A DNA stretch of 64,000 bases from Polaromonas sp. (lineage in GTDB: Bacteria; Pseudomonadota; Gammaproteobacteria; Burkholderiales; Burkholderiaceae_C): assembly GCF_012927485.1 (NCBI RefSeq), contig NZ_JABBPC010000012.1, positions 62,001 through 126,000 of the forward strand, read 5' to 3'. How positions within the stretch are numbered: the stretch's first letter is position 1; each line of letters opens with the position of its first letter. Position numbers and translations under genes: made by a program. Shown here in pieces: positions 38,149-57,937 of this stretch. Below the pieces are notes generated by a model. It was not told where the DNA came from, did not search any database, and worked only from the letters and a program-made list of their open reading frames with translations.

Positions 38149-38424
38149 GGCACAAAGAACCCCGGGAGCTGCGCCGGGAAGACGTGAATCGGTCCGGGCT
38201 CGGTGCAGAACCCAGCCGAGAAAGGCGCTTGCCGTCGCCGTCGACAGCGCAGGAATCCAGCGCCAAATTTGCGTTGACTGGCATGACCACCAATTGCGCC
38301 AACGCACCGCACGACTGGCACCGGATTTGGCACTGCCGAGTCGGCGCCGTCGCGAGTGACGTTCTGAAAGCTGACGCGCTTGACGAGTGGTTTGGCGAGG
38401 GCAACGGACTGAGGCGCCGGCGCA

Positions 38425-39324: not shown

Positions 39325-39332
39325 ATCAGCTT

Positions 39333-40715: not shown

Positions 40716-40724
40716 GGCGGCTAC

Positions 40725-41567: not shown

Positions 41568-41648
41568 CTTGGCACCTTTAGAAGGGGTGGATTTTTGAAG
41601 AGTTGGCCGAAAGTAAACCTGGGGAGAAACGGGATGGTCATGGCGGCC

Positions 41649-42953
41649 TCAGAAACTTGCCAAAGCGGTCAGCCCGACCGAGTTGCTCACATAGTCGAAA
41701 CCAGGCAGATTGGACTGGCGCTTGTCGCGCTGAATCGACGCAGTCAACTTCAGTGCGCGGAGCGGTTGCCAGTCGAGCGCCAGGGTGGCCAGATCGGTGG
41801 TGTCTTGGCGGCCACTGCTGGCAAACCCAGCAAGAGGACCTTTGTAATCCCGGACACCGTGGTCATATCGAGCCCGTAGTGCAATTTTTTCCGTGGCTTT
41901 CCAGGTCGGCGCGACAAAGAGTCGATAGCCTTGGTAGTAACTATCCGTCGAGGTCTGATAACTACCCAAATCCCTCGCCAGGCCTCCCGTTATGGAAGTT
42001 TTCCCAGTGACCGCCCAGGAGCCGTTCAGTTCGCCGATGACGCCCGAGAAATTCCGCGCGGAAAATCCGTCGTAGGTCCGGTCAAATTGCGACATCCGGG
42101 CCTGAACCGTGGTCTTTCCGGTGGGTGCCCAGTCGAGCCTGAACTCATGCTCCTTGTCCTTGAAGTTGCCTGCGAACCCCGACGAAGGGGGGAGGCCGGC
42201 GTTCTCACCAGAGCCGTTCCTGAAGCGATAAGCCACTGAGGTGTCCGACGGAAAAACGTAACGCACACCGGCTTCCGCACCGACCACCTTGGAGTCACCT
42301 TCAAAAGTGAACGGTTGACTATTGGTATTGCTGCGCCGGAATACGCCGCCTACCAAGCGCCATGCACCGCCTAGCTCGTACTCTGCATCGAGCACCGTAG
42401 AGCGACTGGTTCGACGATTGAGCGCGCCCGTGTTTTGGACATCCGCGTAGTTATCGACAGTTTCCTGTCGGTCAGTCGTTAGATTACCGTGCAGTGCGGG
42501 CGTAAAGCTCCATCGCCACGCGGCGGCGTAATTAACCGCTGTGAAATTCAAATTGGAAAACCGCCGGTACCGATGGTCCTCGGCGTTGACCGCCAACTCG
42601 AAGCGCTGCAAGCTATAAGGCTTGTTCAACTTCAAGCCCACCGTGGTCACTGCAATGGTGTCGGAGCGGGTCGGCGTGCCAATCAGCGCCTGGGCATCGG
42701 CTGAGTCGGACAATCGATATACGTTGCTGTCATGCTGCACGCTTTCACTCGCTTGAAATTGGAGCGTATCAAGTTCGTCTGCCTGCGCGGCCAGGGCAAG
42801 GAGCCCCAACATGGCAAGCGGAAGTTGAATCAGGGTGCGGGAAGACAACAACGATAAGTTAATTCGCCGACTACGGCATATCGTGGTGTCATCGCACGCC
42901 CCTCCCGGTTGAGCAAGACCAGAGGGAACAAGAGAGTAGGTTTTTAAGTTCAT
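41649..42953 (-). CDS. epsL: EpsL-type outer-membrane beta-barrel protein
   Basis: 434 residues. The ~58 N-terminal residues include a hydrophobic signal (LPLAMLGLLALAAQADE); the mature protein has alternating beta-strand pattern and ends in aromatic Phe (LTALASF), as outer-membrane barrels do. It matches the EpsL proteins associated with XrtB/PEP-CTERM EPS loci. Likely outer-membrane exit channel or accessory. The start is uncertain; an internal ATG at codon 48 would leave a shortened signal. Confidence 0.85.
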   Translation of the reverse strand: MNLKTYSLVPSGLAQPGGACDDTTICRSRRINLSLLSSRTLIQLPLAMLGLLALAAQADELDTLQFQASESVQHDSNVYRLSDSADAQALIGTPTRSDTIAVTTVGLKLNKPYSLQRFELAVNAEDHRYRRFSNLNFTAVNYAAAWRWSFTPALHGNLTTDRQETVDNYADVQNTGALNRRTSRSTVLDAEYELGGAWRLVGGVFRRSNTNSQPFTFEGDSKVVGAEAGVRYVFPSDTSVAYRFRNGSGENAGLPPSSGFAGNFKDKEHEFRLDWAPTGKTTVQARMSQFDRTYDGFSARNFSGVIGELNGSWAVTGKTSITGGLARDLGSYQTSTDSYYQGYRLFVAPTWKATEKIALRARYDHGVRDYKGPLAGFASSGRQDTTDLATLALDWQPLRALKLTASIQRDKRQSNLPGFDYVSNSVGLTALASF

Positions 42954-42993
42954 GAATATAACTATATCAATAGTTCTTATTTGTATTGAACTT

Positions 42994-44421
42994 TTAATAC
43001 GCCGAACTGTCTTTAAATACCAGGCGAACGGTCCTCACGATGATCAAAAGGTCCAGAGCCAACGACCAATTTCGCAGGTAAGCCAGATCGAAATCAATCC
43101 GTGATTGCATCTTGTCCAGCGTATCGGTTTCGCCACGTTGTCCGTTAACCTGAGCCCAACCAGTGATGCCCGGACGGACTTTGTGGCGAACCATGTAGCC
43201 CTTGATGAGTGCGCGATAGGTTTCGTTGTGCGCCACCGCATGCGGACGAGGGCCGACGATGCTCATCCGACCCTGCAATACATTAATAAACTGGGGTAAC
43301 TCATCCAGCGACGTCTTGCGCAGAAAGGCGCCGAGCCGGGTAACCCGCAAGTCATTTTTTCGTGCCTGTTGAATCGTGCCGCCGTCTTCGGTCACGGCCA
43401 TGGAGCGGAATTTATAAACCAGTATCTGCTCGCCATCCAGACCGTAGCGCCGCTGCTTAAAAATAATCGGCCCTGGAGAGTCGAGCTTTACCAATAGCCC
43501 CAACACAAGCAGGATGGGAGAAATCAACACCAGGATGAGCAGGGCCAGCAGCATGTCGCTGACCCACTTTAACGCCCCATTGAAACCCCGAAATGGCGTA
43601 TCGCAAACTGATATCACAGTGACGCCGCAGACCGAATCACTGCGCCCCTGAATCAGATCGGTGACAAACATATCCGGAACAAAATAGATCGAGGCCGTGG
43701 TGTCTTTCAGACCGTCCAGGATCTCCAAAATACGGGGTCGAGAAGCCATGGGTAGGGATAAATAGATGAATTGGACCCGGTTCTTTTTGACGTAATCTGA
43801 CAGCCCTTCTATTTTTCCCACCAGCTTGTACTCATCCTGCCTCACCCTGCGCTCTTCGCTGCGGTCATCAAAAAACCCCAACAGTTCAATACCCGAGTAG
43901 GCCGAGCCCGCGATGTTCCTGGCGAGACAAACCCCCTGGTCGTTCATGCCGACAATGACGCCCCTGCGCAGGGGGCCCTGCAACTTCAACAACTGGGGCG
44001 CTGCGGCTCGAAGCGCCAAATGAGCCCCCACTTGGGCGAGTGGTGCAACCCACAACCAGGTGCCCACTACCGCCATCGGAAATTTGTAGATATATTCCGT
44101 CGCGAAACCCATTAGCAGCAACAGGCCCGCAACCCATAACCATTGAAATGCGATGTTGAGCATCATTTTCCACACCGGAACCAGGAGCTTGGACGTACCT
44201 GGGAAAGTCAGGGAAAACACCATCACGGAGAGAATCAAATAGGCAGGGCGTACCGAACCTTCAAAGCGGAATGCCAGCGCCCAAAGAGAAAGGACAAACA
44301 CCATAGGATCAAGCGCCGATCCCAAAACGCTAAAAAGCTGGCTTCGGCCAAGCTCCACGGAGCCGGAATCAGCGCGGTTGGGCCATGCAGAAGTCGCTTT
44401 GACGTGGTTGGCTTCAGCCAT
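42994..44421 (-). CDS. epsB: undecaprenyl-phosphate hexose-1-phosphate transferase (EpsB/WcaJ type)
   Basis: 475 residues. Polyisoprenyl-phosphate sugar transferase: four or five N-terminal membrane helices, a CoA-binding-like cytosolic domain (~145-260), one further helix (~282-310), and the catalytic domain with [45 protein letters not shown] and [12 protein letters not shown]. Starts each EPS repeat by adding a hexose phosphate to the lipid carrier. Overlaps epsA by 8 bases. Confidence 0.94.
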
Positions 44422-45202: not shown

Positions 45203-45810
45203 GTTTCCCTCCAATTCCCTGGTTGTTTTTTGTTGGTGGCACTGCGTTGCGTTGTCGCCTCAAGTGCTAACTAAGAATCCAACATACCGCCACGCGCGGC
45301 AATTGGATTGGCCGCACATTTGACGTAGGAAAATAGATCATCCGCACGTAGGCAACCTCCAGTGCGCGCGTCAGATCTCACCTTGCGGTCGAATTTTCAG
45401 CATCAACAACCAGATCTGCAGGGGATGCCGCAGCCGTTGCAAAAGGTTGAACCAACGGCCCGTCGCCGTTTGTTACCATAATTCAAGCGCACCGCCAGGT
45501 TGCTAATGTCGTTTGCGTAAAGTGCATTCTTGGCCATGGAGAACACTGCACTGGCATTGGCCAATACAAGTCGCAACAAGGCGGGCGGGCGATCGATGAG
45601 CGGACGGCGTGCATGAAAGCATGGCCAGAAGGCCGCATGATCCAGGGGCCTTATTGCACTGCACACTCAAAGACCTGTCGGCAGTCAGTTTGTCAACACG
45701 TGCTTCCTGCAATACCCTTGAGGCAAGGCAAGAGCGGGGACACCTTTTCACGTCAACCCACGGTAGATTCAAGATCTGCCTGTCACTCTAAATAATCAGG
45801 AATGCCCTCC
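45203..45810. other. divergent intergenic region between epsA and GH5 gene
   Basis: About 600 bases with no supportable gene; the short frames at 45403-45795 have no ribosome-binding site or family. It should hold divergent promoters for the eps arm and the glycosidase gene. No clear palindrome was found. Confidence 0.45.
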
Positions 45811-48225
45811 ATGCATAGACGTAAATTTTCTCAAGCTGCGGTGGCTCTCGGTGGGCTGGTTTTTGTGCCAAAAAGCGGCTGCACGCCACAGCAACTTCCA
45901 GGCTCAAATTCCTCCGCCAGGGCCGGAGCGACCGCGATGGGCACCAACCTGTCCGGTATGGAGTGGGCCGCGCCCGGACTGCGATTTGGCATGAGCACTA
46001 TGCCCAACCTTGATTTCACCGTGCCACGCAAAGCGGACGTTGCTTATCTGGCGGCCTGCGGCTATGGCAAAAACCGTTTACCCATTCAATGGGAGCTTTT
46101 GCAGCCGATGCTGCACGATACGCTCGCCAATGCAGCGGCCAAATCGATGATCGGCAACCCGGGCGTATTCCATGCGGGCTACGAGTCCTACATCACCGGA
46201 GTGCTCGACGCCCACGCCGCCGCCGGGACCAAGTGCATCATTGACTGCCACAACTACTGCCGCTATCAGGACTTCACCTTTCAGGCTGATGGTTCGGTTA
46301 TTGGCCTGACAGCACCCGCAGACCCATTGCGCCGGCCGTACACCACCGATAACAAGCAGGTCCAAGTTCGGATTTTTGCATTGGCTGCGGGCGCGACGCT
46401 CAAGCAGTCCAACTTCAGGGATTTTTGGACCCGTGTGGCAACGAAATGGCAGAGTCACCCTGGCCTGGGCGGTTATGGCCTGATGAATGAGCCCCATGAC
46501 CTGCCGCAACCCGGTAGCGTCATTGCCTCGAACGGAGGGGAAGACTTGACGATCTGGCCGACCTTTGCTCAAGGGGCGATCAAGGCCATTCGCGCAGTGG
46601 ACGCAAGCACCCCGATCTATGTAGCCGGCAACGGCTGGGATTCGGCGATGGCGATTAGCACGCAAAACCCGGGCTTCCCGCTTTCGGGCGCCCACCTGAT
46701 CTATGAGGTCCATATGTACCTGGACGCGTTCAGCAACGGCGCTGCCTTTGACTATGACACCGAGGTGGCCAAGAACTTCAGCGCCGGTTTCGGCTCGGGT
46801 GCTATTGGGCCGTCCACGGGACTGGACCGTATCAAGCTTGCTACCGACTGGGCCAAAGCCAAAGGCGTCAAACTGGCGTTGACCGAGGTGGGGATGCCGA
46901 TCGACGACCCGCGCTGGCAAGAGATGTTCAAAAAGGCCGTCACCTATGCCCACAGCGTCGGCTGCGAGATCTATAGCTGGATGGGGGGCAGTCACTGGCC
47001 TATCCGCAACTACGCCATCAACCATGCACCGGGCTGGCACCAGAACAAGACGCTGGAGCCTTTGGTCTCCGGCGTGCTCGAGACTTCTGCGGGCAGAGCG
47101 CATGCGACGCTGTTCGACGACGGCCCGGGTTACGCGCCTGCCGGCACGCCCGTCACGATCACGGTGTACGCCCGCGGTAACTTGGCTGCACCGGTCACCC
47201 TGACGGTCGCATCGAACAACGGCGGTACGCTGAGCAAGTCATCGCTTACCATCCCGGCCGGTCCCAACGGGAAGGACACTTATACCTACACGTCTGCGTT
47301 CAACCGCGTCGCCACACTGAGCTACGCCAGCGATGGCCAATTGGCAGGCCAGGTCCCGCCGCCGCGCAAAATCTTCTCGCTCAGCGACCCGGTGGCCTAC
47401 GCCGCCACCAGCGTACCTGACGCGGCGCTGGCGATCATCGCTAAATACAGTGCCTGCAAATGGGAGCTGGCCGACGGCTACACCGACTTCATGCAGGGCG
47501 CGCCTGCTGCGGCCGGTCAAGTGGTCCGTGCGATCAGCGATTCGGGCTATGGCTCCAGCCCGGGCAACGCCATGGAGATGGTCAACTGGACCAACAAAGA
47601 CAGTGCTGCCATGGGCACGATGGCGATGCCGGTCATGCGCGTGACGAATGGCAAAAAGAATTCGGACCATACGCTTGATAACACGTTCGGATTCTGGTGC
47701 AAGAAGTCCACCCCGGCAGCTGGCACCGAGCCCAACCCGACCAACCGGGTGCCCTACAACCTTGAAGACGCGCACTTCGCCATCGCTGCCGTGAGCGTTC
47801 CTTCCGCGAACAACACGGGCGTGGTGTTCCAAGCCTCACAGGCAGAGCAGCTGTACACCTCTGAACTCGGTTTCACCAACAGCCAGCCCCAAGCCAGCTG
47901 GGTCGATGCAAAGGGGAAGACCGTGCAACTGACCAGCCCAACCAGACTGCCGATTCGTACCCCCTCAGTGCTTGCGTTCACGTCGGTGCCAGGCGCGCAA
48001 ACGCTGCGGGTCAATTCTGCCGTGGTCGCGAAGAGTAGCGCAACTTTCGCGCCCAGCGCCTGCAATCAAATGCTGATCGGTTGGGGTTACCGCAGTTATT
48101 ACCCGCGCGATGGCTTCAGAGGGTCTATTTATGCAGTCATCACCGGCAAAGGGAAACCCAGCGCGGACGAGCTAGCGGTGCTGGAACAGTTTTTAGGAAC
48201 TACCGCTGGCCTCACCCTGAAATAA
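45811..48225 (+). CDS. exported GH5-like glycoside hydrolase
   Basis: 804 residues from ATG 45811 (codon 4 of the longest frame), because AGGA then lies 8-9 bases upstream. N-terminal HRRKFSQAAVALGGLVF resembles a Tat signal. The catalytic TIM barrel (~40-420) has the acid/base in LMNEP (E227) and the nucleophile in LALTEVGMP (E359), as in GH5 cellulase-type enzymes. Residues ~440-520 are Ig-like; the remaining ~280 residues are beta-rich and unassigned, perhaps carbohydrate-binding. Likely cleaves a beta-glycan; beside an EPS locus it may process or depolymerise the product. It ends 12 bases from a convergent gene. Confidence 0.87.
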   Translation: MHRRKFSQAAVALGGLVFVPKSGCTPQQLPGSNSSARAGATAMGTNLSGMEWAAPGLRFGMSTMPNLDFTVPRKADVAYLAACGYGKNRLPIQWELLQPMLHDTLANAAAKSMIGNPGVFHAGYESYITGVLDAHAAAGTKCIIDCHNYCRYQDFTFQADGSVIGLTAPADPLRRPYTTDNKQVQVRIFALAAGATLKQSNFRDFWTRVATKWQSHPGLGGYGLMNEPHDLPQPGSVIASNGGEDLTIWPTFAQGAIKAIRAVDASTPIYVAGNGWDSAMAISTQNPGFPLSGAHLIYEVHMYLDAFSNGAAFDYDTEVAKNFSAGFGSGAIGPSTGLDRIKLATDWAKAKGVKLALTEVGMPIDDPRWQEMFKKAVTYAHSVGCEIYSWMGGSHWPIRNYAINHAPGWHQNKTLEPLVSGVLETSAGRAHATLFDDGPGYAPAGTPVTITVYARGNLAAPVTLTVASNNGGTLSKSSLTIPAGPNGKDTYTYTSAFNRVATLSYASDGQLAGQVPPPRKIFSLSDPVAYAATSVPDAALAIIAKYSACKWELADGYTDFMQGAPAAAGQVVRAISDSGYGSSPGNAMEMVNWTNKDSAAMGTMAMPVMRVTNGKKNSDHTLDNTFGFWCKKSTPAAGTEPNPTNRVPYNLEDAHFAIAAVSVPSANNTGVVFQASQAEQLYTSELGFTNSQPQASWVDAKGKTVQLTSPTRLPIRTPSVLAFTSVPGAQTLRVNSAVVAKSSATFAPSACNQMLIGWGYRSYYPRDGFRGSIYAVITGKGKPSADELAVLEQFLGTTAGLTLK

Positions 48226-48233: not shown

Positions 48234-48245
48234 GAGGTTAACCTC
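48234..48245. other. 12-base palindrome between convergent stop codons
   Basis: GAGGTTAACCTC is a perfect palindrome covering the stop codon of the minus-strand DUF1839 gene, 9 bases after the GH5 stop. It is too short and too AT-centred for an obvious terminator. May be chance. Confidence 0.25.
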
Positions 48246-49230
48246 GCCGGGACAGGCATTCAGACAATAACGCCATGCCGCGGTCCCAAGCCTGTGCCAT
48301 CTCGGAAACTATCAGGGTAGCGTCGAGTGGCCGGCCGGAATTAACCGCTCTGGCGCCTTTGAGAATGAGCGCCTTGTTGCTTTGGGAAATGGCATCGAAG
48401 CAATCGGCAACGGCAACCAGGCCCGGATGGTCAAACCCGGCCTGCCAACGGAGGTTGGCGGCAGCGAGTTCAAAAGCCGCCCCCGCCTGCCGAACCGAGG
48501 CAAAGGCCCAGGCATGGTAGTGCGGCAAGCCCTTTGCCTGCAATTCAAGAATATCCTCTGCAAAACGGCGTCCAAACCGGCGGAAAGGGTTGCTCAGAGG
48601 CCGCCGGTCAAAGTGCCGCCGGAGTAACTCAAAGGAAGAAGCCGCTAATTCGTCCTGTGGCCGCCTGACTACTCGGTCGATGCGAATAATCTCCGCAAAA
48701 AGTGGGAGGAATTCAGGGTCGGCGGGCGCCTCCAGGCGGAACAATTGGGAGAAGTCTTCGCCGCAGAGCTCAAAATAACCTGCGTTGTGAAAATAGCCAA
48801 GCCGTCGTGGTTCCCGATCCAGATTTGCCAACAAAATGGACGTCTTGGAGTGCTTGATGCGATAGTCGGTGCCCGCCGTATCAGGTAGCCAGAATGCATC
48901 AACTTCGGTATTGATAAGTTTACCGGCACTCAAATGCTCGACCGCATGCTCAATCAAGGGGCGCCAGACCGTCAACTCCTGAACATCGATGCCGTACAGG
49001 TCACGCAATTCTTCCAGGGATGGCTTGAAAAAAGTCCACTGATCACCCTCAAAATCCACCGCGAGCGTGAAAGGGAGCAAGGCTAGCGGTTCAAGCCTGA
49101 GCGTGTGCAGCAGCTCTATCCATAGATCGACGTAACAGTTCTTTTCGACCCAAACCATCGCTTCGCCATGCACCAGGTGGCGCCGGTAAGTACCCGGGCT
49201 CAGATCCGGCAACACCTCCATGGAGCTCAT
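48238..49230 (-). CDS. DUF1839 family protein
   Basis: 330 residues, no signal peptide or membrane helix. Recognised as DUF1839 from overall sequence and from its place next to an amino-acid:carrier-protein ligase, the typical setting of this family. Motifs: N-terminal YRRHLVHGEAMVWVEKNCYVD, central KHSKTSILLANLD and GYFHNAGYFELCGEDFSQLF. The function is unknown. It overlaps the ligase gene by 4 bases, so stoichiometric co-expression is likely. Candidate roles are aminoacyl transfer, acceptor recognition or editing (inference). Confidence 0.8.
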   Translation of the reverse strand: MSSMEVLPDLSPGTYRRHLVHGEAMVWVEKNCYVDLWIELLHTLRLEPLALLPFTLAVDFEGDQWTFFKPSLEELRDLYGIDVQELTVWRPLIEHAVEHLSAGKLINTEVDAFWLPDTAGTDYRIKHSKTSILLANLDREPRRLGYFHNAGYFELCGEDFSQLFRLEAPADPEFLPLFAEIIRIDRVVRRPQDELAASSFELLRRHFDRRPLSNPFRRFGRRFAEDILELQAKGLPHYHAWAFASVRQAGAAFELAAANLRWQAGFDHPGLVAVADCFDAISQSNKALILKGARAVNSGRPLDATLIVSEMAQAWDRGMALLSECLSRRG

Positions 49231-50138
49231 GTCCAGAGTTGTGCTCGAACAGCATCGGGCCAGGTTTCAGGGTTAAAGCCATGCGCCTTGATTAACGCCA
49301 ACGTAACGCGTTCAAGGCCAAAGCCCAAACAGGCCGTGTGGGCGACTGATTCGTCCGCGTTGCGAATGCCGAACTTGGCGCTGAAATGGTCCTGGTGCCA
49401 GTTGAATGAACAGATCGCAGTCGGTTTTTCAAGGGAAATCACCGGCACCAGAATTTCAAACTTCAAGCGCTGGTCCATCTGGTTGGCAGCCATCATCTTC
49501 CCGACCCGGCCAAAAAACGGATCGGAGGCCACGTCGCTTTCTGCCGGCAAACCAAGACCGCGCAACAAGTCAAGGCCGCGCTGCAGCCAGGCGTCGCGCC
49601 AAGCCACAACGACGTCCGGCTTGCCCACCCGGATGAACTCGCGCATGCGGAAGGACTGCAGGCGAGTCGGCTCGTCGGATGGCTCGTGGCGATAGACCCA
49701 ACCGAGCACCGTAACGAGTCGTCCGCCGTTGGGCAACAAACCGCTGAAAGTTGGATAGACCGGATAGCAGGCAGCCGGCGTCAACATGACTTCAGTTGGA
49801 TTCAACAGCGCTTCCCAGCGTTCACCCCCGTGAATGCGGGCGGACAATTCCCGCGCCTTGGCGTCGTTACCGGAAAAGCTGTGTACCGAACCCGCCAATT
49901 GCGGGAAGTTGTCCATGTAGCCCACTTTTTCCACCAGCGCGCGCGGCAGGATAGGGGGGAACGTCATTTCTTCGGCATTATCAGGTTCGGCTGTGCGGCT
50001 GACCAGATCATTGAAACGCTGCAAAATATCTTCAAACACGCGGCTTCTTCCGTACGCGCCCTTCACCTCGCCGGGGATGATCAAGCCATGCTCGACCAAG
50101 CCACTATAGAAACTCTCGCTATCGTATGAAACTGTCAA
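49227..50138 (-). CDS. amino acid--[acyl-carrier-protein] ligase (SerRS-like)
   Basis: 303 residues, about the catalytic core of an atypical class II seryl-tRNA synthetase without a tRNA-binding arm. Family members activate an amino acid with ATP and load it on the phosphopantetheine of a carrier protein instead of tRNA. Motif 2 is RHEPSDEPTRLQSFRMREF (150-168) and motif 3 is LGFGLERVTLALI (271-283). C124, E167 and C270 sit where the family's zinc ligands are expected. The matching carrier protein gene lies 1.8 kb away on the other strand. Which amino acid is used is not visible; characterised homologues from Bradyrhizobium and Agrobacterium use small ones such as glycine or alanine. Confidence 0.9.
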   Translation of the reverse strand: MTVSYDSESFYSGLVEHGLIIPGEVKGAYGRSRVFEDILQRFNDLVSRTAEPDNAEEMTFPPILPRALVEKVGYMDNFPQLAGSVHSFSGNDAKARELSARIHGGERWEALLNPTEVMLTPAACYPVYPTFSGLLPNGGRLVTVLGWVYRHEPSDEPTRLQSFRMREFIRVGKPDVVVAWRDAWLQRGLDLLRGLGLPAESDVASDPFFGRVGKMMAANQMDQRLKFEILVPVISLEKPTAICSFNWHQDHFSAKFGIRNADESVAHTACLGFGLERVTLALIKAHGFNPETWPDAVRAQLWT

Positions 50139-51325
50139 GGCGCATCCTTGAAGACGAGCAGCATGGACGCGTTTTTGGCGAAGATTCGATCATTTGAAAT
50201 CATCAGCGATGCCGACAGCGCATCACGGTATTGCCGGCCCAGGCTGAAGGGACTGTCGTTTTTGTAGCCCAGAATGCCCACGATCTGCAAGGCGCGGTGC
50301 ACGATCTGTGGAGCCGCTTCCGAACACGATATTTTTAAATTGTTGAGTCGCAGCGCCCAACCCATACTCGACAACTCTTCCTGAGCTGCGGCGTCCGGGG
50401 CAATGGCATCGAACGCCTGAGCGGCACACTGCCAGTTCTGCTTCATCGTTTGCAGCTGCATGGACACCTCTGCCAAACGGGAGGCCGTGGGAGGCACCGT
50501 GCCGGGTGTCTGTCGGGCCTGACCGCGTACAAAATTGGCCGACTTCCCAACAGCGTCGGCTGCAATTCCCCACCAAAGCGCACCCCACAGGATATGGGAA
50601 TAAGGCACCATGGTTTGGGCAGAACTGTCCGCATACGAACCGGGAACAATCTGATGATCGGAACCCGAAGATTCGAGCCGGAATCCCGGGCTGCAAGTGC
50701 CGCGCAAACCCATCGTGTCCCAGCTGGTCGTCTGAGTGAGCGTGCAGTCTTCACGTCTGACAAGTACCAGCACCTGGTCGCTGGCGGGCGCACTCGCCTC
50801 GCGGCGACAAGTTACCAAAATAGCGTCTGCATAAGCGCAATAGGAACCAGTAGTCGCGTCCTTGTTCAAGACAAACCGCCCACCTTGGCGCTCAACGGCA
50901 CAGATACTTGAGCGGGTATCTCCATAGGTGCCCACCTCGGAAGTCATCGATGCCAATAAATACTGGTGCTTCACAACATCGCGCAAGTAGCCCTGGAAGA
51001 AATCGCTGTTCAACCCGTGGCGAGCAATGCAGCCCAGCTGAATGTAGTGCATGGCAAGCACCATGCCGCTGGAGCCGCAGGATTGAGACAACGTCGAGCA
51101 CAGCTGGGCCAACTCCAACAGCGTGCATCCGGCACCTCCAAAGTCGCGGGGTACGGCGGCAGACAGAACGCCCGCCTCGCGCAGGGCCTCCAGGGTTTCC
51201 GCCGGAAAGCGGCCTTTTTTGTCTACGTCGGCAGCGTGTAGCGCCGCTACGTCTGCGCCGACCCGACGCGTTGCTTCGAGCAAGAACCCAAAACTTTGAT
51301 TAACCTGTGTTGATTGAAGACTCAT
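50135..51325 (-). CDS. acyl-CoA dehydrogenase family flavoprotein (aminoacyl-carrier cluster)
   Basis: 396 residues from ATG 51325; TTG 51346 would add 7 residues. Acyl-CoA dehydrogenase fold: N-terminal helical domain with FPAETLEALREAGVLSAAVP, middle domain with LASMTSEVGTYGDTRSS, and C-terminal helices with SLGRQYRDALSASLMISNDRI. Relatives in secondary metabolism (for example those acting on prolyl-carrier proteins) oxidise aminoacyl groups bound to carriers, so an alpha,beta-oxidation of the aminoacyl-carrier thioester is plausible here. Overlaps the ligase by 4 bases and is the first gene of the leftward operon. Confidence 0.88.
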   Translation of the reverse strand: MSLQSTQVNQSFGFLLEATRRVGADVAALHAADVDKKGRFPAETLEALREAGVLSAAVPRDFGGAGCTLLELAQLCSTLSQSCGSSGMVLAMHYIQLGCIARHGLNSDFFQGYLRDVVKHQYLLASMTSEVGTYGDTRSSICAVERQGGRFVLNKDATTGSYCAYADAILVTCRREASAPASDQVLVLVRREDCTLTQTTSWDTMGLRGTCSPGFRLESSGSDHQIVPGSYADSSAQTMVPYSHILWGALWWGIAADAVGKSANFVRGQARQTPGTVPPTASRLAEVSMQLQTMKQNWQCAAQAFDAIAPDAAAQEELSSMGWALRLNNLKISCSEAAPQIVHRALQIVGILGYKNDSPFSLGRQYRDALSASLMISNDRIFAKNASMLLVFKDAP

Positions 51326-51566
51326 ATTGATAGATGCCAATGTCAAACATTCGATTTCAGATTGGGCTTGAAAGCCCGGCTACTGCCGCTCAAAAAAAAG
51401 GGATCTTGTCTTACATTTCCCGTAACCAGTTACAGCCTATTATCCGTTTGCCAAGCGATAGCGTGTACAGATAAACCCTCAAGGTGCGTAGCATGAAAGC
51501 AAAATCCTGATGTTCAGATTAACACCTAATGAAAATATTTGTGCAAGCCTCTTACCGGGATTTCGC

Positions 51567-51977
51567 ATGGGTTTCGACTTGGTAAAAATTAGCGAGCTAG
51601 CAAACTCGATCCACCATTTCGGCGACGTTTTCAAGCGCAAGTTATTTACCAAGAATGAGCTCAATTACGCGCACAGCGGAAGTGGATTGTGCGAGGAACG
51701 ATTGGCAACTCGATTTGCTGCCAAAGAGGCTGTCATCAAGGCTCTCAAGCTCAGCGAAGCGGGAATCGGCTGGCGTGAAATTGAGGTGCTGAAGTTACCG
51801 GACGGAAACTGCGAAGTTGCCTTGCACGGCCGCGTTGCGGAGTTGGCGAAAAGTATGGGCGTTGCCGACATCTCGTTGAGTTTGAGCCACGACGGTGATT
51901 ACGCAGGCGCCGTGGTGGCACTGCGCTGTTCACAACCTGAAGTTAACAACTCTCTTTATGACCGGCATTCACTATGA
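51567..51977 (+). CDS. 4'-phosphopantetheinyl transferase (AcpS-like)
   Basis: 136 residues from ATG 51567, which puts the family's first motif at the N-terminus (GFDLVKI, with metal ligand D4). The second motif, RLATRFAAKEAVIKAL, carries E54, the other magnesium ligand. It would convert the adjacent apo-carrier protein to holo form by attaching phosphopantetheine from CoA. It overlaps the carrier gene by 4 bases, which makes a dedicated role likely. The housekeeping AcpS is expected elsewhere in the genome. Confidence 0.88.
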   Translation: MGFDLVKISELANSIHHFGDVFKRKLFTKNELNYAHSGSGLCEERLATRFAAKEAVIKALKLSEAGIGWREIEVLKLPDGNCEVALHGRVAELAKSMGVADISLSLSHDGDYAGAVVALRCSQPEVNNSLYDRHSL

Positions 51978-52231
51978 GAAATTTAGAACAGGTTGAAGCC
52001 CAAATCCGCAGCGTGTTACTGGCCCATGGTCGTCTGAATCGGGAAGTGAGTTCGCTGGACGTTTCCACGGACCTTTACCAATCGGGAATGACCTCCCATG
52101 CGAGCGTCAATGTCATGTTGGCACTCGAAGGGGCTTTTGACGTGGAGTTTCCAGACCATCTCCTGAAACGCAGCGTTTTCGGCAGCATTGAATCCATACA
52201 CCATGCCTTGAACCAGCTGGCTACCACCTGA
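51974..52231 (+). CDS. acyl/aminoacyl carrier protein
   Basis: 85 residues, a four-helix carrier protein. The modification site reads SGMTSHASVNVMLALE (37-52), so S41 is the likely phosphopantetheine serine, and the usual DSL is replaced by TSH. This matches the carriers encoded beside amino-acid:carrier ligases rather than fatty-acid ACP. Coupled to the AcpS-like gene by ATGA overlap; followed 8 bases later by the GH2 gene. It is the expected substrate of the ligase at 49227-50138. Confidence 0.9.
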   Translation: MRNLEQVEAQIRSVLLAHGRLNREVSSLDVSTDLYQSGMTSHASVNVMLALEGAFDVEFPDHLLKRSVFGSIESIHHALNQLATT

Positions 52232-52239
52232 GCGTAGAC

Positions 52240-54810
52240 ATGAGTAAGCCAAGGACGCGCCACCACATGCGAGAGCTGCTGCTGGTGAACTGGCTTATCT
52301 GCGCTACGCCTCCAGGAGATGCCGGGCAATGCACTCCGCCTGAGGGATCTTGCTGGACCCGCATACGACAGCTGATGCCGGCCGCAGCCGCCTTGCGTGA
52401 ACTGAAGGAATGGTCGCTCGACGAACCTGCCCGACGCTTTGATGCCCAGGACTGGTGGTACAAATTGACATTTGACGCCTCCCCCAGGAATTTTGCAGAA
52501 CCAGCTGTCCTGGGGTTTGACGGGTTGGCGACGATTGCACAGGTCTGGTTAAACGGAAAGCTGCTGCTGGCCAGTACCAATATGTTCGTGGAGCACGAAT
52601 GCGACGTCAGCAGCGTCCTCAAGGACAACGACAACGAGCTGTTGATTTGCTTTAGAGCGCTCGACGCGAAACTGGCCATGCCGCGCAAAAGACCGCGGTG
52701 GCGCGCTCCGATGGTTGCGCATCAGCAATTGCGCTGGTTTCGCACGACATTGCTGGGGCGCACTCCGGGTTGGTCGCCCCCTGCTGCTGTGGTGGGACCG
52801 TGGAAAGACATCTGGCTGGAGCAGCGCAGACAGTTTCACATCAAGGATCTTTGTGTCGAAGTCAGCGTCGATGACACGACCGGGACGGTCAAGTGCCGTT
52901 TGGCGTGTGAACCTCTAGGTGGCCAGACTATCGACGCCGTTACGCTGCAACTCGAGCGCTGCGGACGTGTCGATGTGCAGCGCCTTTCGGGCAGAGTTGG
53001 TACGATTTTCTTTGCAGGACAACTGCAGCTAGGCAACGTCGACTTGTGGTGGCCCCACACCCACGGGGAACCCTCGCTGTACTCGGCTTCCTTGAGAATC
53101 CGCATTGCGGGTATCCTGGATGAAACTGTCATTGCAATTGGCCGAGTGGGATTTCGCACGATCACGCTGGATACCGCTAACGGAAATTTCTCGTTGAACG
53201 TCAACGGCGTGTCTATTTTTTGCCGCGGCGCCTGCTGGACCCCTCTGGATCCGGTCACTTTGCGCGCTTGTCCCGAAGCGTCCCAAGCGGCTGTCGCACA
53301 GGCGCGATCGGCTGGCATGAACATGCTGCGCGTAGCCGGAACCATGGTCTACGAAGAACACCATTTTTTTGATGCCTGCGACGAACAGGGCATGCTTGTC
53401 TGGCAGGACCTTATGTTTGCCAACATGGATTATCCCGGCGACGACTCGGAATTCATGGCGTCCGTGGTGCTTGAAGTAAGCCAGCAGCTCCGGGGCCTTC
53501 AGGCAACCGCCTGCCTGGCATTGCTTTGCGGTAACAGCGAAGTGGAGCAGCAGGCCGCTATGTGGGGAGCGCCACGCGAGCTCTGGCAACCGGCGCTGTT
53601 TGAAGACACCTTGGCCCAACTCTGTGCGGATCATGCACCGGGCACGCCGTACTGGCCTTCCAGTGCGCACGGCGGATCGTTCCCGCACCAGGCAAGCACC
53701 GGCACAAGCTCCTACTACGGCGTCGGTGCCTACCTTCGTCCGCTGGACGATGCGAGGCGGGCAGACGTGAAGTTCGCAACCGAATGCCTGGCGTTTGCCA
53801 ACATTCCCGCTGCCGCGACCATTGGCCGGATGCCCGGGGGGTTGGCCATCCGGGTGCATCACCCGGAGTGGAAAGCCCGCTCTCCGCGTGACCTTGGCGC
53901 AGGCTGGGACTTTGACGATGTGCGCGACCACTACCTGGGAACGCTGTTCCACACCGATCCGCAAAAACTGCGCTACACGGATCACGACCATTACCTTACA
54001 TTGGGCCGCATGGCGACAGGCGAAGTGATGGCGGCCAGCTTTGCCGAATGGAGGCGCCCGGCTTCACCTTGCGGAGGCGCAATGGTGCTATTTTTACGCG
54101 ATCTGTGGGCCGGGGCCGGCTGGGGATTGATCGATGACTCCGGTGTGCCAAAGGCCTGTTATCACTACCTCAAACGAGCACTACAACCGCTTACGGTGCT
54201 CCTGTCCGACGAAGGCGTTAACGGGTTGTTCGCGCATGTCATCAACGAGCGTAATGAAGACCGACCACTTGAACTTGAACTCACTGCCTGGCGGGAGGGT
54301 GATGTTTTGGTTGCGAGCGGGAGAAAACTCCTGACGCTGCCTGCGCGAAGTGCCCAGAGCTTTGCGGGCGTGGAGTTGCTCGGGCAGTTCATGGATCTGA
54401 CGTATGCGTACAAATTCGGACCCATGACGTGTGACGCCGTCGTGCTGACGCTTCGAGACCAATTGGGAAATCAACTGGCTCAGGCATTTCATTTTCCCGG
54501 GGGTCTCGGCGTTCGATCAGAAATTGATATCGGGTTGACGGCACGGGCCACCATGGTAGACGCTCAAACCGCCGAGCTGACCGTTCATACCAAGCGTTTC
54601 GCGCAGGGCGTTCACTTTGCCGTACCGGGATTTCATGCGGACGATGACTATTTTCATTTGCCACCCAACTCGGAGGCTCGGGTCACACTTCGGGGGGCGG
54701 GGTCTGGTCCGTTGATGGGCTCTGTTCATGCGATCAACTCGATCAAAAGTGCGCGTGTTGACTTCGCAGCATCAGCGATTGGTGATCCGCATCGGGAAAA
54801 GACCAAATGA
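52240..54810 (+). CDS. GH2-like glycoside hydrolase (beta-mannosidase type)
   Basis: 856 residues, no clear signal peptide, so probably cytoplasmic. Domain order is that of family 2: jelly-roll sugar-binding domain (~20-190), Ig-like domain (~200-310), TIM barrel (~320-650), C-terminal beta domains. The acid/base motif is LCGNSEVEQ (E434; usually CGNNE) and the nucleophile is likely E515 in KFATECLAFANIP. The N-terminal domain is beta-mannosidase-like. Its place between the carrier protein and the tandem hydrolase is odd for an ordinary glycosidase and suggests a task in glycan modification, or a repurposed role. Confidence 0.85.
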   Translation: MSKPRTRHHMRELLLVNWLICATPPGDAGQCTPPEGSCWTRIRQLMPAAAALRELKEWSLDEPARRFDAQDWWYKLTFDASPRNFAEPAVLGFDGLATIAQVWLNGKLLLASTNMFVEHECDVSSVLKDNDNELLICFRALDAKLAMPRKRPRWRAPMVAHQQLRWFRTTLLGRTPGWSPPAAVVGPWKDIWLEQRRQFHIKDLCVEVSVDDTTGTVKCRLACEPLGGQTIDAVTLQLERCGRVDVQRLSGRVGTIFFAGQLQLGNVDLWWPHTHGEPSLYSASLRIRIAGILDETVIAIGRVGFRTITLDTANGNFSLNVNGVSIFCRGACWTPLDPVTLRACPEASQAAVAQARSAGMNMLRVAGTMVYEEHHFFDACDEQGMLVWQDLMFANMDYPGDDSEFMASVVLEVSQQLRGLQATACLALLCGNSEVEQQAAMWGAPRELWQPALFEDTLAQLCADHAPGTPYWPSSAHGGSFPHQASTGTSSYYGVGAYLRPLDDARRADVKFATECLAFANIPAAATIGRMPGGLAIRVHHPEWKARSPRDLGAGWDFDDVRDHYLGTLFHTDPQKLRYTDHDHYLTLGRMATGEVMAASFAEWRRPASPCGGAMVLFLRDLWAGAGWGLIDDSGVPKACYHYLKRALQPLTVLLSDEGVNGLFAHVINERNEDRPLELELTAWREGDVLVASGRKLLTLPARSAQSFAGVELLGQFMDLTYAYKFGPMTCDAVVLTLRDQLGNQLAQAFHFPGGLGVRSEIDIGLTARATMVDAQTAELTVHTKRFAQGVHFAVPGFHADDDYFHLPPNSEARVTLRGAGSGPLMGSVHAINSIKSARVDFAASAIGDPHREKTK

Positions 54811-56597
54811 CCGCTTTTTCCGCCCCCGAGGTTGCCACAGGCGCAGTACCGATTGCGTTCATGGCCGCAGGAGCGTGGTGTTTTGGATGGTTTCATCCGG
54901 CACGACTCCCGGCACGAAAAGTTGGCGTCGTCTTGTGTTCTCCGATTGGCTATGAAGCTATTTGCGCGCACCAAACTTATACCCAGCTGGCGGATGCTCT
55001 GGCGGAGGCCGGGTTTGCGGTCGTTCGATTCGACTATCACGGAACCGGTGACTCTTCCGGAGGAGATGCCGATCCTGATCGCGTGCGCGCCTGGATGGAC
55101 AGCATCACGTCAGCCATCAATGAATTGAAGCGGCTAGGCGATGTTTCACACGTCGCCTTGTTCGGTGTACGCCTGGGTGCGACGCTTGCAGCGCACGCCG
55201 CGTCGCAGCTCGGCGGAATCGAAAGCCTGGTGATGTGGGCGCCCTGCATTACGGGCCGTTCTTTTGCGCGGGAATTACGCGCCGCCAGCGGAAATCGCCC
55301 TATGTCGGCTCGGCCTGCGGCGCCAGGCGATATTGAGGCGCTTGGCTATCTTTACACCGCCCAAACGCTTCAAGACCTCCAAGCTCTGGACTGTCAATGT
55401 TTGGATAGGCCGCTAGCGCAACGCGTGTTGATTCTCGGCCGCGACGATATGCCCGGGGAGGGGCCGTTGCCCGCGAAGTACCGCGAGATAGGGATGGACA
55501 CCAGCTACGCTGTGATGCGTGGCTACTCTGGAATGATGACCGAGCCTCATGAGGCGGTACCCGAGCCTGCGACTCTTAATTTGATCACGGACTGGCTGTC
55601 TGCAGTGCACCCGCTGCCGGACACCTTGCAAGAGGCAACCAGCACAGCGGCCCCCGGCCCGATCGACTACCTGGTCGACGGCATCCGCGAGACACCTCAG
55701 CTGTTTGGCCTCGACCGATCACTGTTTGGGATATTGTCCGAGTCGGCCGAACTAAAGTCTTCCGACAGCCGCCTGGAAACGGCCATTTTGATGCTGAACG
55801 TCGGCAGGAATCATCACATCGGACCCAACAGAATGTACGTCAAGACGGCACGCTCATTGGCTGCGTCGGGGTATCGTACGTTTCGCTTCGACCTGGCCGG
55901 TATAGGAGACAGTCGCCCCCGGGCAGGCCTCTCGAGCGGAGGGATCTATTCAAAAGACTCGATTGCAGATGTTCAGGCGGCAATCGACAGCCTGGTGGCC
56001 CAAGGCTGCAAGAAGTTTTACCTCATGGGCATCTGCTCTGGCTCCTATGTTGCGTTCCAGACGGCACTTGTCGACCCACGGGTCACCGGACAAATCCTGA
56101 TGAATTCCCGGCTGCTGGAATGGCATGATGGGAAGGCGGGCGGCACATGGCAAAGTTCCATGCAGATGTATTACAAGTCCTCTGATTTTTACCGACGCGC
56201 ACTGTTGCGTCCGGATCTCTACCGACGAATCCTACGCGGTGAAGTTGATGTGAACGGCATCGCAAGGCGTCTAAGAACGGTTTTCAAGGCCCGGTTGGCA
56301 CGCGCATTCAACCGTTTCCTCCATCGCACTCCGGCTGAAGAAGGCGTGCTGGATAAAGTCAAGAATTTGAGTGCCCGCGGCACGGATACGGTGCTGATCA
56401 TGTCTGCTGACGACGATGGGCGTGACTACGTTGAGTTCCAGTTTGGAAGGTTGGGTAGTCGCATGCAGGGCAATCCCAATTTTCGTATGGTTCTGGTTGA
56501 GGAATCCGACCACACTTTTTCCGACTCGGAGAGTCAACGGTTCGTCATTGACACCGTCCAGGAACACCTGAAAAAAAGAGTCTCGAAGATGGGCTAG
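54807..56597 (+). CDS. tandem alpha/beta-hydrolase protein
   Basis: 596 residues with two alpha/beta-hydrolase domains (~1-265 and ~285-596). In domain 1 the nucleophile elbow reads G120-V-R-L-G124, with Arg replacing Ser. In domain 2 it reads G408-I-C-S-G412, with Cys410 as possible nucleophile, followed by a late EESDHTF (candidate Asp/His). The elbows recall, from memory, the two hydrolases of exosortase-A-type EPS loci, here fused into one chain. Domain 2 may act as a thioesterase or acyltransferase on the aminoacyl-carrier; domain 1 may be structural. 4-base overlap with the GH2 gene; no signal peptide. Confidence 0.82.
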   Translation: MTAFSAPEVATGAVPIAFMAAGAWCFGWFHPARLPARKVGVVLCSPIGYEAICAHQTYTQLADALAEAGFAVVRFDYHGTGDSSGGDADPDRVRAWMDSITSAINELKRLGDVSHVALFGVRLGATLAAHAASQLGGIESLVMWAPCITGRSFARELRAASGNRPMSARPAAPGDIEALGYLYTAQTLQDLQALDCQCLDRPLAQRVLILGRDDMPGEGPLPAKYREIGMDTSYAVMRGYSGMMTEPHEAVPEPATLNLITDWLSAVHPLPDTLQEATSTAAPGPIDYLVDGIRETPQLFGLDRSLFGILSESAELKSSDSRLETAILMLNVGRNHHIGPNRMYVKTARSLAASGYRTFRFDLAGIGDSRPRAGLSSGGIYSKDSIADVQAAIDSLVAQGCKKFYLMGICSGSYVAFQTALVDPRVTGQILMNSRLLEWHDGKAGGTWQSSMQMYYKSSDFYRRALLRPDLYRRILRGEVDVNGIARRLRTVFKARLARAFNRFLHRTPAEEGVLDKVKNLSARGTDTVLIMSADDDGRDYVEFQFGRLGSRMQGNPNFRMVLVEESDHTFSDSESQRFVIDTVQEHLKKRVSKMG

Positions 56598-57127: not shown

Positions 57128-57937
57128 ATGGCGCCTAACGTGACAGCCAACCGTCGACCGATTCCCATTCTGATGTATCACCAGATTGCCGTAGCGCCCC
57201 CCGAAGCGGGTCTCTACCGCAGCTTGTATGTGCCTCCAACTGAGTTTTCGCGACAGATGACTTTTTTGCGCTACATGGGCTACCGGGGTTTGTCGATGAC
57301 GGCGTTGCAGCCGTATCTTCGGGGAGAAAAACAAGGGCGCGTGGTCGGCATCACGCTGGACGATGGCTATCTCAACAACCTCACTCATGCGCTGCCGGTT
57401 TTAGAACGCAATGGATTTTCGTCCACTTGTTATGTCGTCAGCCAACTGATCGGCAAGACCAACGCGTGGGACCGCGAGGCCGGCATACCGCAAACTCTTT
57501 TGATGGATGCCCCGCAACTGCGTCAATGGGTGGCAGCAGGCCAGGACGTGGGCGCACACACTCGGCATCATGTGCGACTTAAGAATATTGATGTTGACCG
57601 CAGCCTTGAAGAGATTGCACTGTGCAAATCTGACCTGGAGGAGGCAACCGACGCGCCCGTCCATCATTTCTGCTATCCCTACGGCGGATACGAGTCGCAG
57701 CATAGGGACATCGCGCAAGAGGCAGGTTATCAAACTGCGACCAACTCACGGCGTTCCCGCTGTCATTTAAACGAAGACATGATGCAACTGCCCCGCTTAC
57801 CGGTCGTGCATTCAACCAACCTGCCGTCCTTTTTGCTCAAGGTGGCGACTCCCCACGAGGATCCTCGCAGGACTCTGTCCTTGTGGCTCAAGGCGACAAA
57901 CGCCATCAAGGGATTGCGCCAAACCGAAGAGGTCTAG
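57128..57937 (+). CDS. polysaccharide deacetylase (NodB/CE4 family)
   Basis: 269 residues. ILMYHQI near the N-terminus, GITLDDGY (TFDDG-type motif with the catalytic Asp pair), GAHTRHH (metal-binding His pair), and HFCYPYGGY. No obvious signal peptide, so cytoplasmic or non-classically located. Removes N- or O-acetyl groups from a glycan; related proteins occur in XrtA/XrtB EPS loci. The ribosome-binding site before ATG 57128 is weak. Ends the island of carbohydrate genes. Confidence 0.88.
   Translation: MAPNVTANRRPIPILMYHQIAVAPPEAGLYRSLYVPPTEFSRQMTFLRYMGYRGLSMTALQPYLRGEKQGRVVGITLDDGYLNNLTHALPVLERNGFSSTCYVVSQLIGKTNAWDREAGIPQTLLMDAPQLRQWVAAGQDVGAHTRHHVRLKNIDVDRSLEEIALCKSDLEEATDAPVHHFCYPYGGYESQHRDIAQEAGYQTATNSRRSRCHLNEDMMQLPRLPVVHSTNLPSFLLKVATPHEDPRRTLSLWLKATNAIKGLRQTEEV

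What the first reader, a model, noticed from the sequence alone, without database searches (positions are those of the whole stretch)
48238..56597. Aminoacyl-carrier-protein system embedded in a polysaccharide island
Seen: divergent operons encode a SerRS-like amino-acid:carrier-protein ligase, an acyl-CoA-dehydrogenase-like flavoprotein and a DUF1839 protein (leftward), and an AcpS-type transferase, a carrier protein, a GH2-like enzyme and a tandem alpha/beta hydrolase (rightward), nearly all with 4-base overlaps. Established: such ligases load amino acids on carrier proteins instead of tRNA, and the fate of the aminoacyl group is generally unknown. Inference: activation, loading, flavin-dependent oxidation and transfer of an amino-acid-derived acyl group to a glycan, giving an aminoacylated (or dehydro-aminoacyl/heteroaromatic acyl) polysaccharide.
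Basis: partly seen in the sequence, partly recalled or inferred. Interest (0 to 1): 0.85.

Follow-up and report, generated by a model that had tools for sequence, protein, structure and literature searches.

The report
Portable aminoacyl-carrier gene cassette
Seven neighbouring genes look like a small assembly line that picks up an amino acid on a carrier protein, probably oxidises it, and hands it to another molecule, perhaps a sugar; much the same set recurs in unrelated bacteria and its product is unknown.

Summary
In detail: all seven genes lie at the stated coordinates, have the stated families, and sit in an exopolysaccharide (EPS) island. They are one case of a conserved cassette (carrier protein, ACAD-like flavoprotein, SerRS-like ligase, DUF1839, GH2, fused alpha/beta-hydrolase, often a PPTase) seen, by record titles, in seven phyla. 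In one 398-genome sample DUF1839 occurs in 16 genomes, all 16 with the ligase; three genomes outside that sample keep it without a ligase. The AlphaFold model of DUF1839 matches, over nearly its whole length, AziU3, CtaG and CcbD; CcbD joins a carrier-bound amino acid to an amino-sugar. So transfer has structural support. The flavoprotein lacks the usual catalytic Glu, which speaks against plain dehydrogenation. The hydrolase resembles a fused exosortase-A 'hydrolase 2 + hydrolase 1', with the same odd Arg and Cys at the nucleophile positions. EPS genes are enriched beside cassettes (32 of 96 versus 2 of 40 controls) but not found beside two thirds of them, nor beside the three congeners' cassettes. 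A glycan acceptor is plausible, not shown. The central idea was printed as a prediction in 2010 (PMC2922099); my searches found no test of it.

The parts
48238..49230 (-). DUF1839 protein, predicted carrier-protein-dependent aminoacyl transferase (papain-like; Cys32, His148)
   Evidence: PF08893 E 1.3e-99; AF2 model pLDDT 95.8; Foldseek to AziU2-U3 complex, CtaG, CcbD; best copy per locus: Cys32 in 106 of 107, His148 in 108 of 108 rows
49227..50138 (-). SerRS-like amino acid:carrier-protein ligase
   Evidence: NF005479 405.7 bits over cut-off 357; nearest solved relative Bll0957 (4h2w E 8.5e-75); C124, E167, C270 conserved
50135..51346 (-). ACAD-fold flavoprotein without the canonical catalytic Glu
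   Evidence: (Glu positions replaced); AF2 model pLDDT 94.8; fold matches
51510..51977 (+). second AcpS-type phosphopantetheinyl transferase, presumably dedicated to the cassette
   Evidence: PF01648, TIGR00556 over cut-off; a better scoring AcpS lies on contig C9
51974..52231 (+). carrier protein, attachment Ser41
   Evidence: PF00550, NF005480 over cut-off; Ser41 column 1.00 in 108 rows
52240..54810 (+). GH2 glycosidase, beta-mannosidase-like, no signal peptide seen by eye
   Evidence: nearest solved: beta-mannosidases 5n6u, 2je8; E434 (E 90, D 4 of 94) and E515 (94 of 94); N-terminus
54807..56597 (+). fused alpha/beta-hydrolase: N-half with Arg at the nucleophile position, C-half with Cys410 and His569
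   Evidence: hydr2_PEP and hydr1_PEP halves, both below curated cut-offs; columns; same residues, column-aligned, in four hydr2/hydr1 pairs
57128..57937 (+). polysaccharide deacetylase next to the cassette; not a conserved member
   Evidence: PF01522 E 1.7e-24; 7 of 96 cassette loci versus 2 of 40 controls
45802..48225 (+). GH5 glycosidase with a Tat/lipoprotein-like N-terminus (by eye); not a conserved member
   Evidence: PF00150; 2 of 96 cassette loci versus 0 of 40 controls
25119..44421 (.). EPS island beside the cassette (galE, Wzx, polymerase-like protein with weak matches, glycosyltransferases, WecG, Wzz, Wza, sugar-phosphate transferase)

Best explanation
A self-contained pathway that travels as a cassette. 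The ligase adenylates a small amino acid (glycine-like, inferred) and loads it on the dedicated carrier protein, primed by its own AcpS. The ACAD-fold flavoprotein oxidises the carrier-bound aminoacyl group, more likely by N- or C-oxygenation than by classical alpha,beta-dehydrogenation (inferred). DUF1839 takes the group onto Cys32 and passes it to an amine, most likely on a sugar, forming an amide, as CcbD does in celesticetin synthesis (inferred from fold). The Cys-type half of the alpha/beta-hydrolase then moves, releases or proof-reads a carrier- or ester-bound acyl group, and the GH2 enzyme acts on the glycoside part of the acceptor or product (inferred). In this genome the product is probably made for, or attached to, the EPS encoded next to it; in many others it is made with no EPS gene nearby. 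Shown here: gene content, conservation, predicted fold, active-site residues, co-occurrence. Not shown: any reaction, the amino acid, the acceptor.
For: Ligase over its curated cut-off, with the Zn-ligand triad of Bll0957 (ligand numbers recalled; they map to C124, E167, C270) and no tRNA-binding domain. DUF1839 in 16 of 398 genomes, 16 of 16 with the ligase, which is over cut-off in 28 of 398. Distance matrices of the five core proteins correlate, r 0.56-0.86, largest permuted value 0.16, 83 loci. DUF1839 model matches a chain of the AziU2-U3 complex (E 1.3e-7), CtaG (1.5e-7) and CcbD (2.2e-4) over 324-379 alignment columns, TM 0.51-0.64; the next hit has E 0.17. [quoted passage not shown] In L059 and L164 the cassette's DUF1839 has lost the Cys and a second copy about 3.8 kb away keeps it. 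EPS enrichment. Kinship of the hydrolase with exosortase-A hydrolases, Cys and Arg in the same columns in 4 of 4 pairs.
Against: 64 of 96 cassette loci have no EPS marker in the stretch read, nor have 3 of 3 same-genus cassettes. Polysaccharide deacetylase is not enriched (7 of 96 versus 2 of 40; p 1.0). DUF1839 has no detectable sequence similarity to any solved chain, so kinship with CcbD rests on predicted fold alone. AziU3 and CtaG, which match better than CcbD, do not have sugar acceptors as far as I recall, so the fold does not fix a sugar. The flavoprotein's best matches, by profile and by fold, are ordinary short-chain ACADs, so the oxygenase reading rests on lost residues. Three genomes keep the rest of the cassette with no ligase found. 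The published triad for DUF1839 (C-T/S-H, PMC10318531, passages) differs from a CcbD-like C-H-acid order, and I could not measure geometry.
Confidence: 0.5

Rival explanations
1. The product is a free small molecule (an aminoacyl amide or glycoside used as metabolite, signal or toxin) and the EPS neighbourhood is incidental; the acceptor need not be a sugar.
For: Cassettes stand alone on plasmids: in 11 of the 12 annotated plasmid regions opened, CP-ACAD-ligase-DUF1839-GH2 sit together (the twelfth, L182, has DUF1839 alone), mostly among transporter, nif or housekeeping genes; EPS markers in 2 of 13 plasmid loci. No flank family is shared by more than 15 of 127 loci. AziU3 and CtaG, the best fold matches, serve small-molecule pathways (pathway roles recalled).
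Against: EPS markers are six to seven times more frequent near cassettes than in control regions, also when both come from the same genomes (8 of 16 versus 2 of 36). The hydrolase is kin to EPS-locus hydrolases. No transporter family is in more than 10 of 127 loci among the families looked at. The plasmid region L162 has an LTA-synthase-like and an aminoarabinose-transferase-like gene, outside my marker set.
Confidence: 0.32
2. One reading: alpha,beta-oxidation gives a dehydro-aminoacyl or heteroaromatic acyl group that is put on the EPS polymer.
For: ACAD fold, with ordinary short-chain ACADs as best matches; prolyl-ACP dehydrogenase 4irn is among the profile matches, E 1.2e-14; EPS location here.
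Against: The MCAD-type Glu is I or V in 112 of 112 rows; the IVD-type position is S, A, T or C (the second by hand alignment). A glycyl group, if that is the substrate, has no beta-carbon. N-oxygenating relatives (3mxl, DnmZ 4zxv, KijD3 3m9v/4kcf; functions of DnmZ and KijD3 recalled) score better than 4irn, DszC about equally.
Confidence: 0.08
3. A minimal nonribosomal peptide system, as the discoverers of the ligase proposed (proposal as reported in PMC2922099).
For: Carrier loading of amino acids; a condensing enzyme of CcbD/CtaG-like fold; an AMP-binding enzyme family lies near 10 of 127 loci.
Against: That AMP-binding family was not found in the other 117 loci read; GH2 in 108 of 116 DUF1839 loci points elsewhere; the 2010 note argued against it.
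Confidence: 0.05
4. A degradative set: GH2 and hydrolase break a glycoconjugate and the carrier system disposes of the amino acid.
For: Both Glu of GH2 retained in most rows; beta-mannosidase kinship.
Against: ATP-costly carrier loading is unusual for catabolism; none of the 20 flank families annotated is a sugar-uptake set.
Confidence: 0.05

Closest known systems
SerRS-paralogue aminoacyl-carrier system predicted by Iyer and colleagues 2010 (PMC2922099, note added in proofs)
   Same: Ligase, carrier protein, redox enzyme, conserved uncharacterised protein (their Atu2574), glycosidase and sugar genes; predicted amide bond to an amino group of a cell-surface sugar; redox enzyme predicted to oxygenate.
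   Different: They argued from gene neighbourhoods. Added here: fold match of DUF1839 to CcbD/CtaG/AziU3, a counted control for EPS linkage, many cassettes without EPS markers, the Cys/Arg hydrolase fusion, the second AcpS, ligase-free variants. That Atu2574 is DUF1839 is inferred from their description, not checked.
Lincosamide synthetase (CcbD/LmbD with carrier protein)
   Same: Carrier-bound amino acid passed through a papain-like Cys enzyme of similar overall fold to an amine; the CcbD acceptor is an amino-sugar (PMC12945683, passages).
   Different: Activation there is by an NRPS-type adenylation protein (recalled); no flavoprotein, GH2 or Cys hydrolase is known to me as part of that condensing unit; no sequence similarity found.
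Bll0957-type amino acid:carrier-protein ligases
   Same: Same family, E 8.5e-75 to 4h2w; bll0958 beside bll0957 is an acyl-CoA dehydrogenase (table passage in PMC10888616).
   Different: Twelve loci with ligase and ACAD (10 with CP) lack DUF1839, GH2 and hydrolase, and their genomes gave no DUF1839 match. Bll0957's own genome was not searched.
Exosortase-A (XrtA/PEP-CTERM) EPS hydrolase 1 and 2
   Same: C-half is nearest to hydrolase 1 (E 1e-17), N-half nearest to hydrolase 2 (E 4e-15; narrow margin over hydrolase 1 in two of four); Cys and Arg in the same columns in 4 of 4 pairs.
   Different: Fused in one chain here; both halves score below the curated cut-offs. The hydrolase 1 genes were picked by TIGR03100, hydrolase 2 as the adjacent ORF; the presence of an exosortase was not checked.
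DltA/DltC D-alanylation
   Same: Carrier-bound amino acid destined for a surface glycan polymer (DltA listed in PMC11253843, passage).
   Different: Different ligase, no flavoprotein, membrane O-acyltransferase instead of a papain-like enzyme (recalled).

Membership tests
amino acid--[acyl-carrier-protein] ligase | score over the curated NCBIfam cut-off | tested here: met
   405.7 against 357 bits
amino acid--[acyl-carrier-protein] ligase | SerRS core without tRNA-binding domain, Zn triad Cys-Glu-Cys | tested here: met
   303 aa; aligns to residues 54-328 of 4h2w and only to 296-506 of a 527-aa SerRS; C124 1.00, E167 0.98, C270 1.00 in 119 rows; ligand numbers recalled
amino acid--[acyl-carrier-protein] ligase | loads an amino acid on the adjacent carrier | not testable with these tools
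   needs an enzyme assay
acyl-CoA dehydrogenase | overall fold and domains | tested here: met
   PF02771, PF00441 over cut-off, PF02770 below it; Foldseek E 1.1e-19 to human SCAD
acyl-CoA dehydrogenase | catalytic Glu at the MCAD or IVD position | tested here: not met
   I/V383 where ACADs have the Glu of YEGT, by gapless HMMER alignment, 112 of 112 rows; S/A/T/C at the IVD position by hand alignment from memory of IVD
carrier-protein-dependent papain-like transferase (CcbD, CtaG, BtrH) | whole-length fold match | tested here: met
   TM 0.51-0.64 over 324-379 columns, rmsd 5.5-7.0
carrier-protein-dependent papain-like transferase (CcbD, CtaG, BtrH) | Cys and His of the triad | tested here: met
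   Cys32 and His148, spacing 116; C11 and H128 in CtaG entry titles (117), C19 in a CcbD entry title and His131 in the review (112); His127 is equally conserved
carrier-protein-dependent papain-like transferase (CcbD, CtaG, BtrH) | acid of the triad | tested here: inconclusive
   D159 and E180 conserved, geometry not measured; PMC10318531 proposes C-T/S-H
carrier-protein-dependent papain-like transferase (CcbD, CtaG, BtrH) | sequence similarity to a solved member | tested here: not met
   0 hits at E up to 5 and up to 10
GH2 beta-mannosidase | catalytic acid/base and nucleophile Glu | tested here: met
   E434 (90 of 94, D in 4), E515 (94 of 94); positions assigned by recalled motif
XrtA hydrolase 1 / hydrolase 2 | curated NCBIfam cut-off | tested here: not met
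   133.1 against 168.45 and 96.7 against 202.75 bits
EPS modification system | conserved linkage to EPS genes | tested here: inconclusive
   32 of 96 loci versus 2 of 40 controls; 0 of 3 congeners

The most novel reading that the evidence does not exclude
A general, portable bacterial route, seen in seven phyla, in which a tRNA-synthetase relative charges a carrier with a small amino acid, an ACAD-fold oxygenase turns it into an unusual oxidised aminoacyl group, and DUF1839 amidates sugars with it; exosortase-A EPS loci would use a parallel carrier route ending in the same Cys/Arg hydrolase pair. It would make carrier-borne aminoacylation a common, overlooked decoration of bacterial glycoconjugates.
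Probability: 0.28. Interest if true: 0.82.

Novelty: new variant of a known kind. Interest (0 to 1): 0.6.

Why it matters
What becomes of the aminoacyl group loaded by SerRS-like ligases has been open since 2010. A fold-based assignment of DUF1839 as the transferase, with a named Cys to mutate, and a defined small gene set that can be moved into a laboratory host, makes the question directly testable. If the acceptor is a sugar, it adds a carrier-borne route to aminoacylated glycans in plant-associated and environmental bacteria.

Tried and rejected
Dedicated exporter or shared flank gene: none found; the most widespread flank family is in 15 of 127 loci (representative: a histidine kinase); only 20 of the 60 families printed were annotated. 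Polysaccharide deacetylase as supplier of the acceptor amine: not enriched (7 of 96 versus 2 of 40). GH5 as a member: 2 of 96. Sequence-level link of DUF1839 to solved structures: none. Promoters in the divergent gap: no consensus site. That count has limits: marker profiles were seeded from this window's EPS genes and do not cover all surface-glycan genes; all controls come from the unnamed sample genomes (36 of 40 from genomes with DUF1839, 4 from ligase genomes without it), none from the named, congener or plasmid loci; loci are not phylogenetically independent. Of 115 DUF1839 loci besides the window, 8 without GH2 and 11 shorter than 12 kb were dropped before the count. The CpsD, BBP2, GMC and AcylT3 markers were dropped for (CpsD profiles, I think, also catch ParA-type ATPases). 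Literature: 'DUF1839' gives one paper; ligase and locus-tag searches list no experiment on the cassette; the 2010 PNAS paper is not held.
Full report
WHAT IS THERE. The seven genes of the finding are present at the given coordinates and belong to the named families. Two divergent operons are separated by 163 bases; four of five within-operon junctions overlap by four bases and CP/GH2 has an 8-base gap. The window beside them is an EPS island. The genome holds another, better scoring AcpS on a different contig, so the one in the cassette is an extra, presumably dedicated enzyme.

DISTRIBUTION. In a sample of 398 genomes of the phylum the ligase model rings in 44, over its cut-off in 28; DUF1839 rings in 16 of the same 398, and all 16 are among the 28. 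The other 12 ligase genomes gave no DUF1839, and again (0 of 13 searched, G051 included). In the class sample DUF1839 is in 4 of 369. Among 61 genomes (own, 36 congeners, 24 others of the order) the ligase is over cut-off in 4, the window's genome and three congeners, with one more weak match. On plasmids DUF1839 is in 59 of 72,556 records.

CASSETTE. Of 116 loci with DUF1839 that I read (window included), 108 hold the ACAD-like gene, 108 the ligase, 108 GH2, 101 the carrier protein, 76 the fused hydrolase and 50 the PPTase; some misses are contig ends. In the 65 named loci of 12 kb or more the figures are 62, 61, 62, 61, 51 and 42. The commonest orders are CP-ACAD-ligase-DUF1839-GH2-hydrolase (24 of 108 loci with DUF1839 and GH2) and the divergent order of this window (19 of 108), among 30 arrangements. 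Distance matrices of CP, ACAD, ligase, DUF1839 and GH2 in 83 loci correlate at r 0.56 to 0.86, against at most 0.16 in 500 permutations per pair; species relatedness also feeds these values. A smaller set, ligase with ACAD and in 10 of 12 loci CP, without DUF1839, GH2 and hydrolase nearby, is found in L060-L065 and L067-L072. Three genomes keep CP, ACAD, DUF1839, GH2 and hydrolase with no ligase found in the genome (two of the three are of unknown completeness), which no explanation here accounts for.

LIGASE. It is closest to Bll0957, a solved amino acid:carrier-protein ligase (E 8.5e-75 to 4h2w). The three zinc ligands that I recall for Bll0957 map to C124, E167 and C270, conserved in 1.00, 0.98 and 1.00 of 119 rows. 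A review table lists Gly, Ala and Ser for such ligases (PMC9437257, passages). The amino acid used here is not known.

DUF1839 IS THE LIKELY TRANSFERASE. The model from 37 sequences has mean pLDDT 95.8. Foldseek against the PDB gives a chain of the AziU2-U3 complex (taken as AziU3), CtaG and CcbD over nearly the whole length, TM 0.51-0.64, and then nothing below E 0.1. CcbD takes a carrier-tethered proline onto its Cys and the amino group of a thiooctose attacks it (PMC12945683, passages). BtrH, another carrier-to-aminoglycoside acyltransferase, is placed in the papain-like superfamily by PMC10318531 (passages). With the best copy per locus, Cys32 is kept in 106 of 107 rows and His148, His127 and D159 in 108 of 108. 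Counting all 119 copies, three have Arg or Gln instead of the Cys (L050, L059, L164; eight more were not caught by the simple pattern, five of which show the Cys in the printed text). In L059 and L164 a second copy about 3.8 kb away keeps the Cys; the genome of L050 has a second copy that I did not read. PMC10318531 gives DUF1839 a C-T/S-H triad and guesses glycan processing from context (passages). No sequence similarity to solved chains was found.

FLAVOPROTEIN. The fold is that of acyl-CoA dehydrogenases, and the best matches by profile and fold are ordinary short-chain ACADs. The MCAD-type Glu aligns with I/V383, near an invariant N385; the IVD-type position, by hand alignment, is S, A, T or C; the RKQFG and GGxGY stretches seen in aligned ACADs are also changed. 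The nitrososynthase 3mxl, DnmZ, KijD3 and DszC are among the profile matches, as is a prolyl-ACP dehydrogenase. I read this as an oxygenase or oxidase on a carrier-bound aminoacyl group; the 2010 note also guessed oxygenation. This is inference; an unrecognised base cannot be excluded.

HYDROLASE. In 70 aligned rows (loci with a chain of 500 aa or more) the C-half has Cys at the nucleophile position in 70 of 70 and His569 in 68 of 68 read; the N-half has Arg there in 59 of 68 read, Gly in 8 and Asp in 1, and so looks inactive. In four relatives with a hydrolase 1 over the TIGR03100 cut-off (4 of 61 genomes), hydrolase 1 has Cys and the adjacent hydrolase 2 has Arg in the same alignment columns. 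C-half and N-half are each nearest to the corresponding partner, narrowly so for the N-half in two of four. This is a link to EPS biochemistry that does not depend on neighbourhood, though it rests on the published names of those families.

GH2. Nearest to beta-mannosidases, both Glu kept but for four Asp, no signal peptide seen by eye in the four sequences looked at. Its substrate is unknown.

GLYCAN LINK. With profiles seeded from the window's own EPS genes, 32 of 96 cassette loci (12 kb or more, window not counted) have at least one marker, against 2 of 40 control 20-kb regions (Fisher p 3.6e-4); two or more marker types in 19 of 96 against 0 of 40; unnamed sample plus congeners 10 of 21 against 2 of 40 (p 1.7e-4). 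Restricting loci and controls to the same genomes gives 8 of 16 against 2 of 36 (p 5.4e-4). By group: congeners 0 of 3, unnamed sample 10 of 18, named 20 of 62, plasmids 2 of 13; ligase-without-DUF1839 loci 3 of 19, all Wzz-like. So the link shows in the statistics and is missing in most single cases. Fourteen plasmid regions were opened, two of them without annotation: in 11 of the 12 annotated the cassette lies mostly among unrelated genes, once directly beside nif genes; the twelfth has DUF1839 alone.

PRIOR ART. [quoted passage not shown] My searches list no test of it; subscription papers are mostly not in that library. The present evidence adds structure, counts and active-site facts to that prediction.

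VERDICT. The locus is a new variant of a predicted but uncharacterised kind.

Noticed in passing
L186, plasmid NZ_CP092345.1 region 421760-442707: In Rhizobium gallicum the cassette lies directly downstream of nifD-nifK-nifN-nifX-fdxB on a conjugative plasmid, next to an annotated exopolysaccharide production repressor.
   Followed up: no
literature: Bradyrhizobium diazoefficiens bll0957/bll0958: Ligase and neighbouring acyl-CoA dehydrogenase are both 3.0-fold up in a phaR mutant under microaerobic conditions (table passage in PMC10888616): a lead to a low-oxygen role.
   Followed up: no
L044, L126, L157: Cassettes with CP, ACAD, DUF1839, GH2 and hydrolase but no amino-acid ligase found in the genome; another loading enzyme must exist or the system is decaying.
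   Followed up: partly
L059 10500-11480 and 15331-16551; L164 10898-11881 and 15656-16852: Paired DUF1839 copies: the cassette copy lacks the catalytic Cys, the nearby second copy keeps it.
   Followed up: partly
L168-L171: Exosortase-A 'hydrolase 1' and the adjacent 'hydrolase 2' have Cys and Arg where a Ser nucleophile is expected, so neither looks like an ordinary serine hydrolase.
   Followed up: partly
near 10 of 127 loci, e.g. L080 9495-11171: An AMP-binding (acyl-adenylating) enzyme family recurs within 10 kb of some ligase or cassette loci.
   Followed up: no
window 13544-23190: Leftward set of an M81/MlrC metallopeptidase-like protein, two amidases and a branched-chain amino-acid-type ABC transporter with a divergent GntR regulator: looks like a small peptide or amide uptake and breakdown operon.
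   Followed up: no
window 34037-35728: GMC-type oxidoreductase, with weak similarity to pyranose oxidase and mycofactocin-associated MftG, inside the EPS gene run.
   Followed up: no
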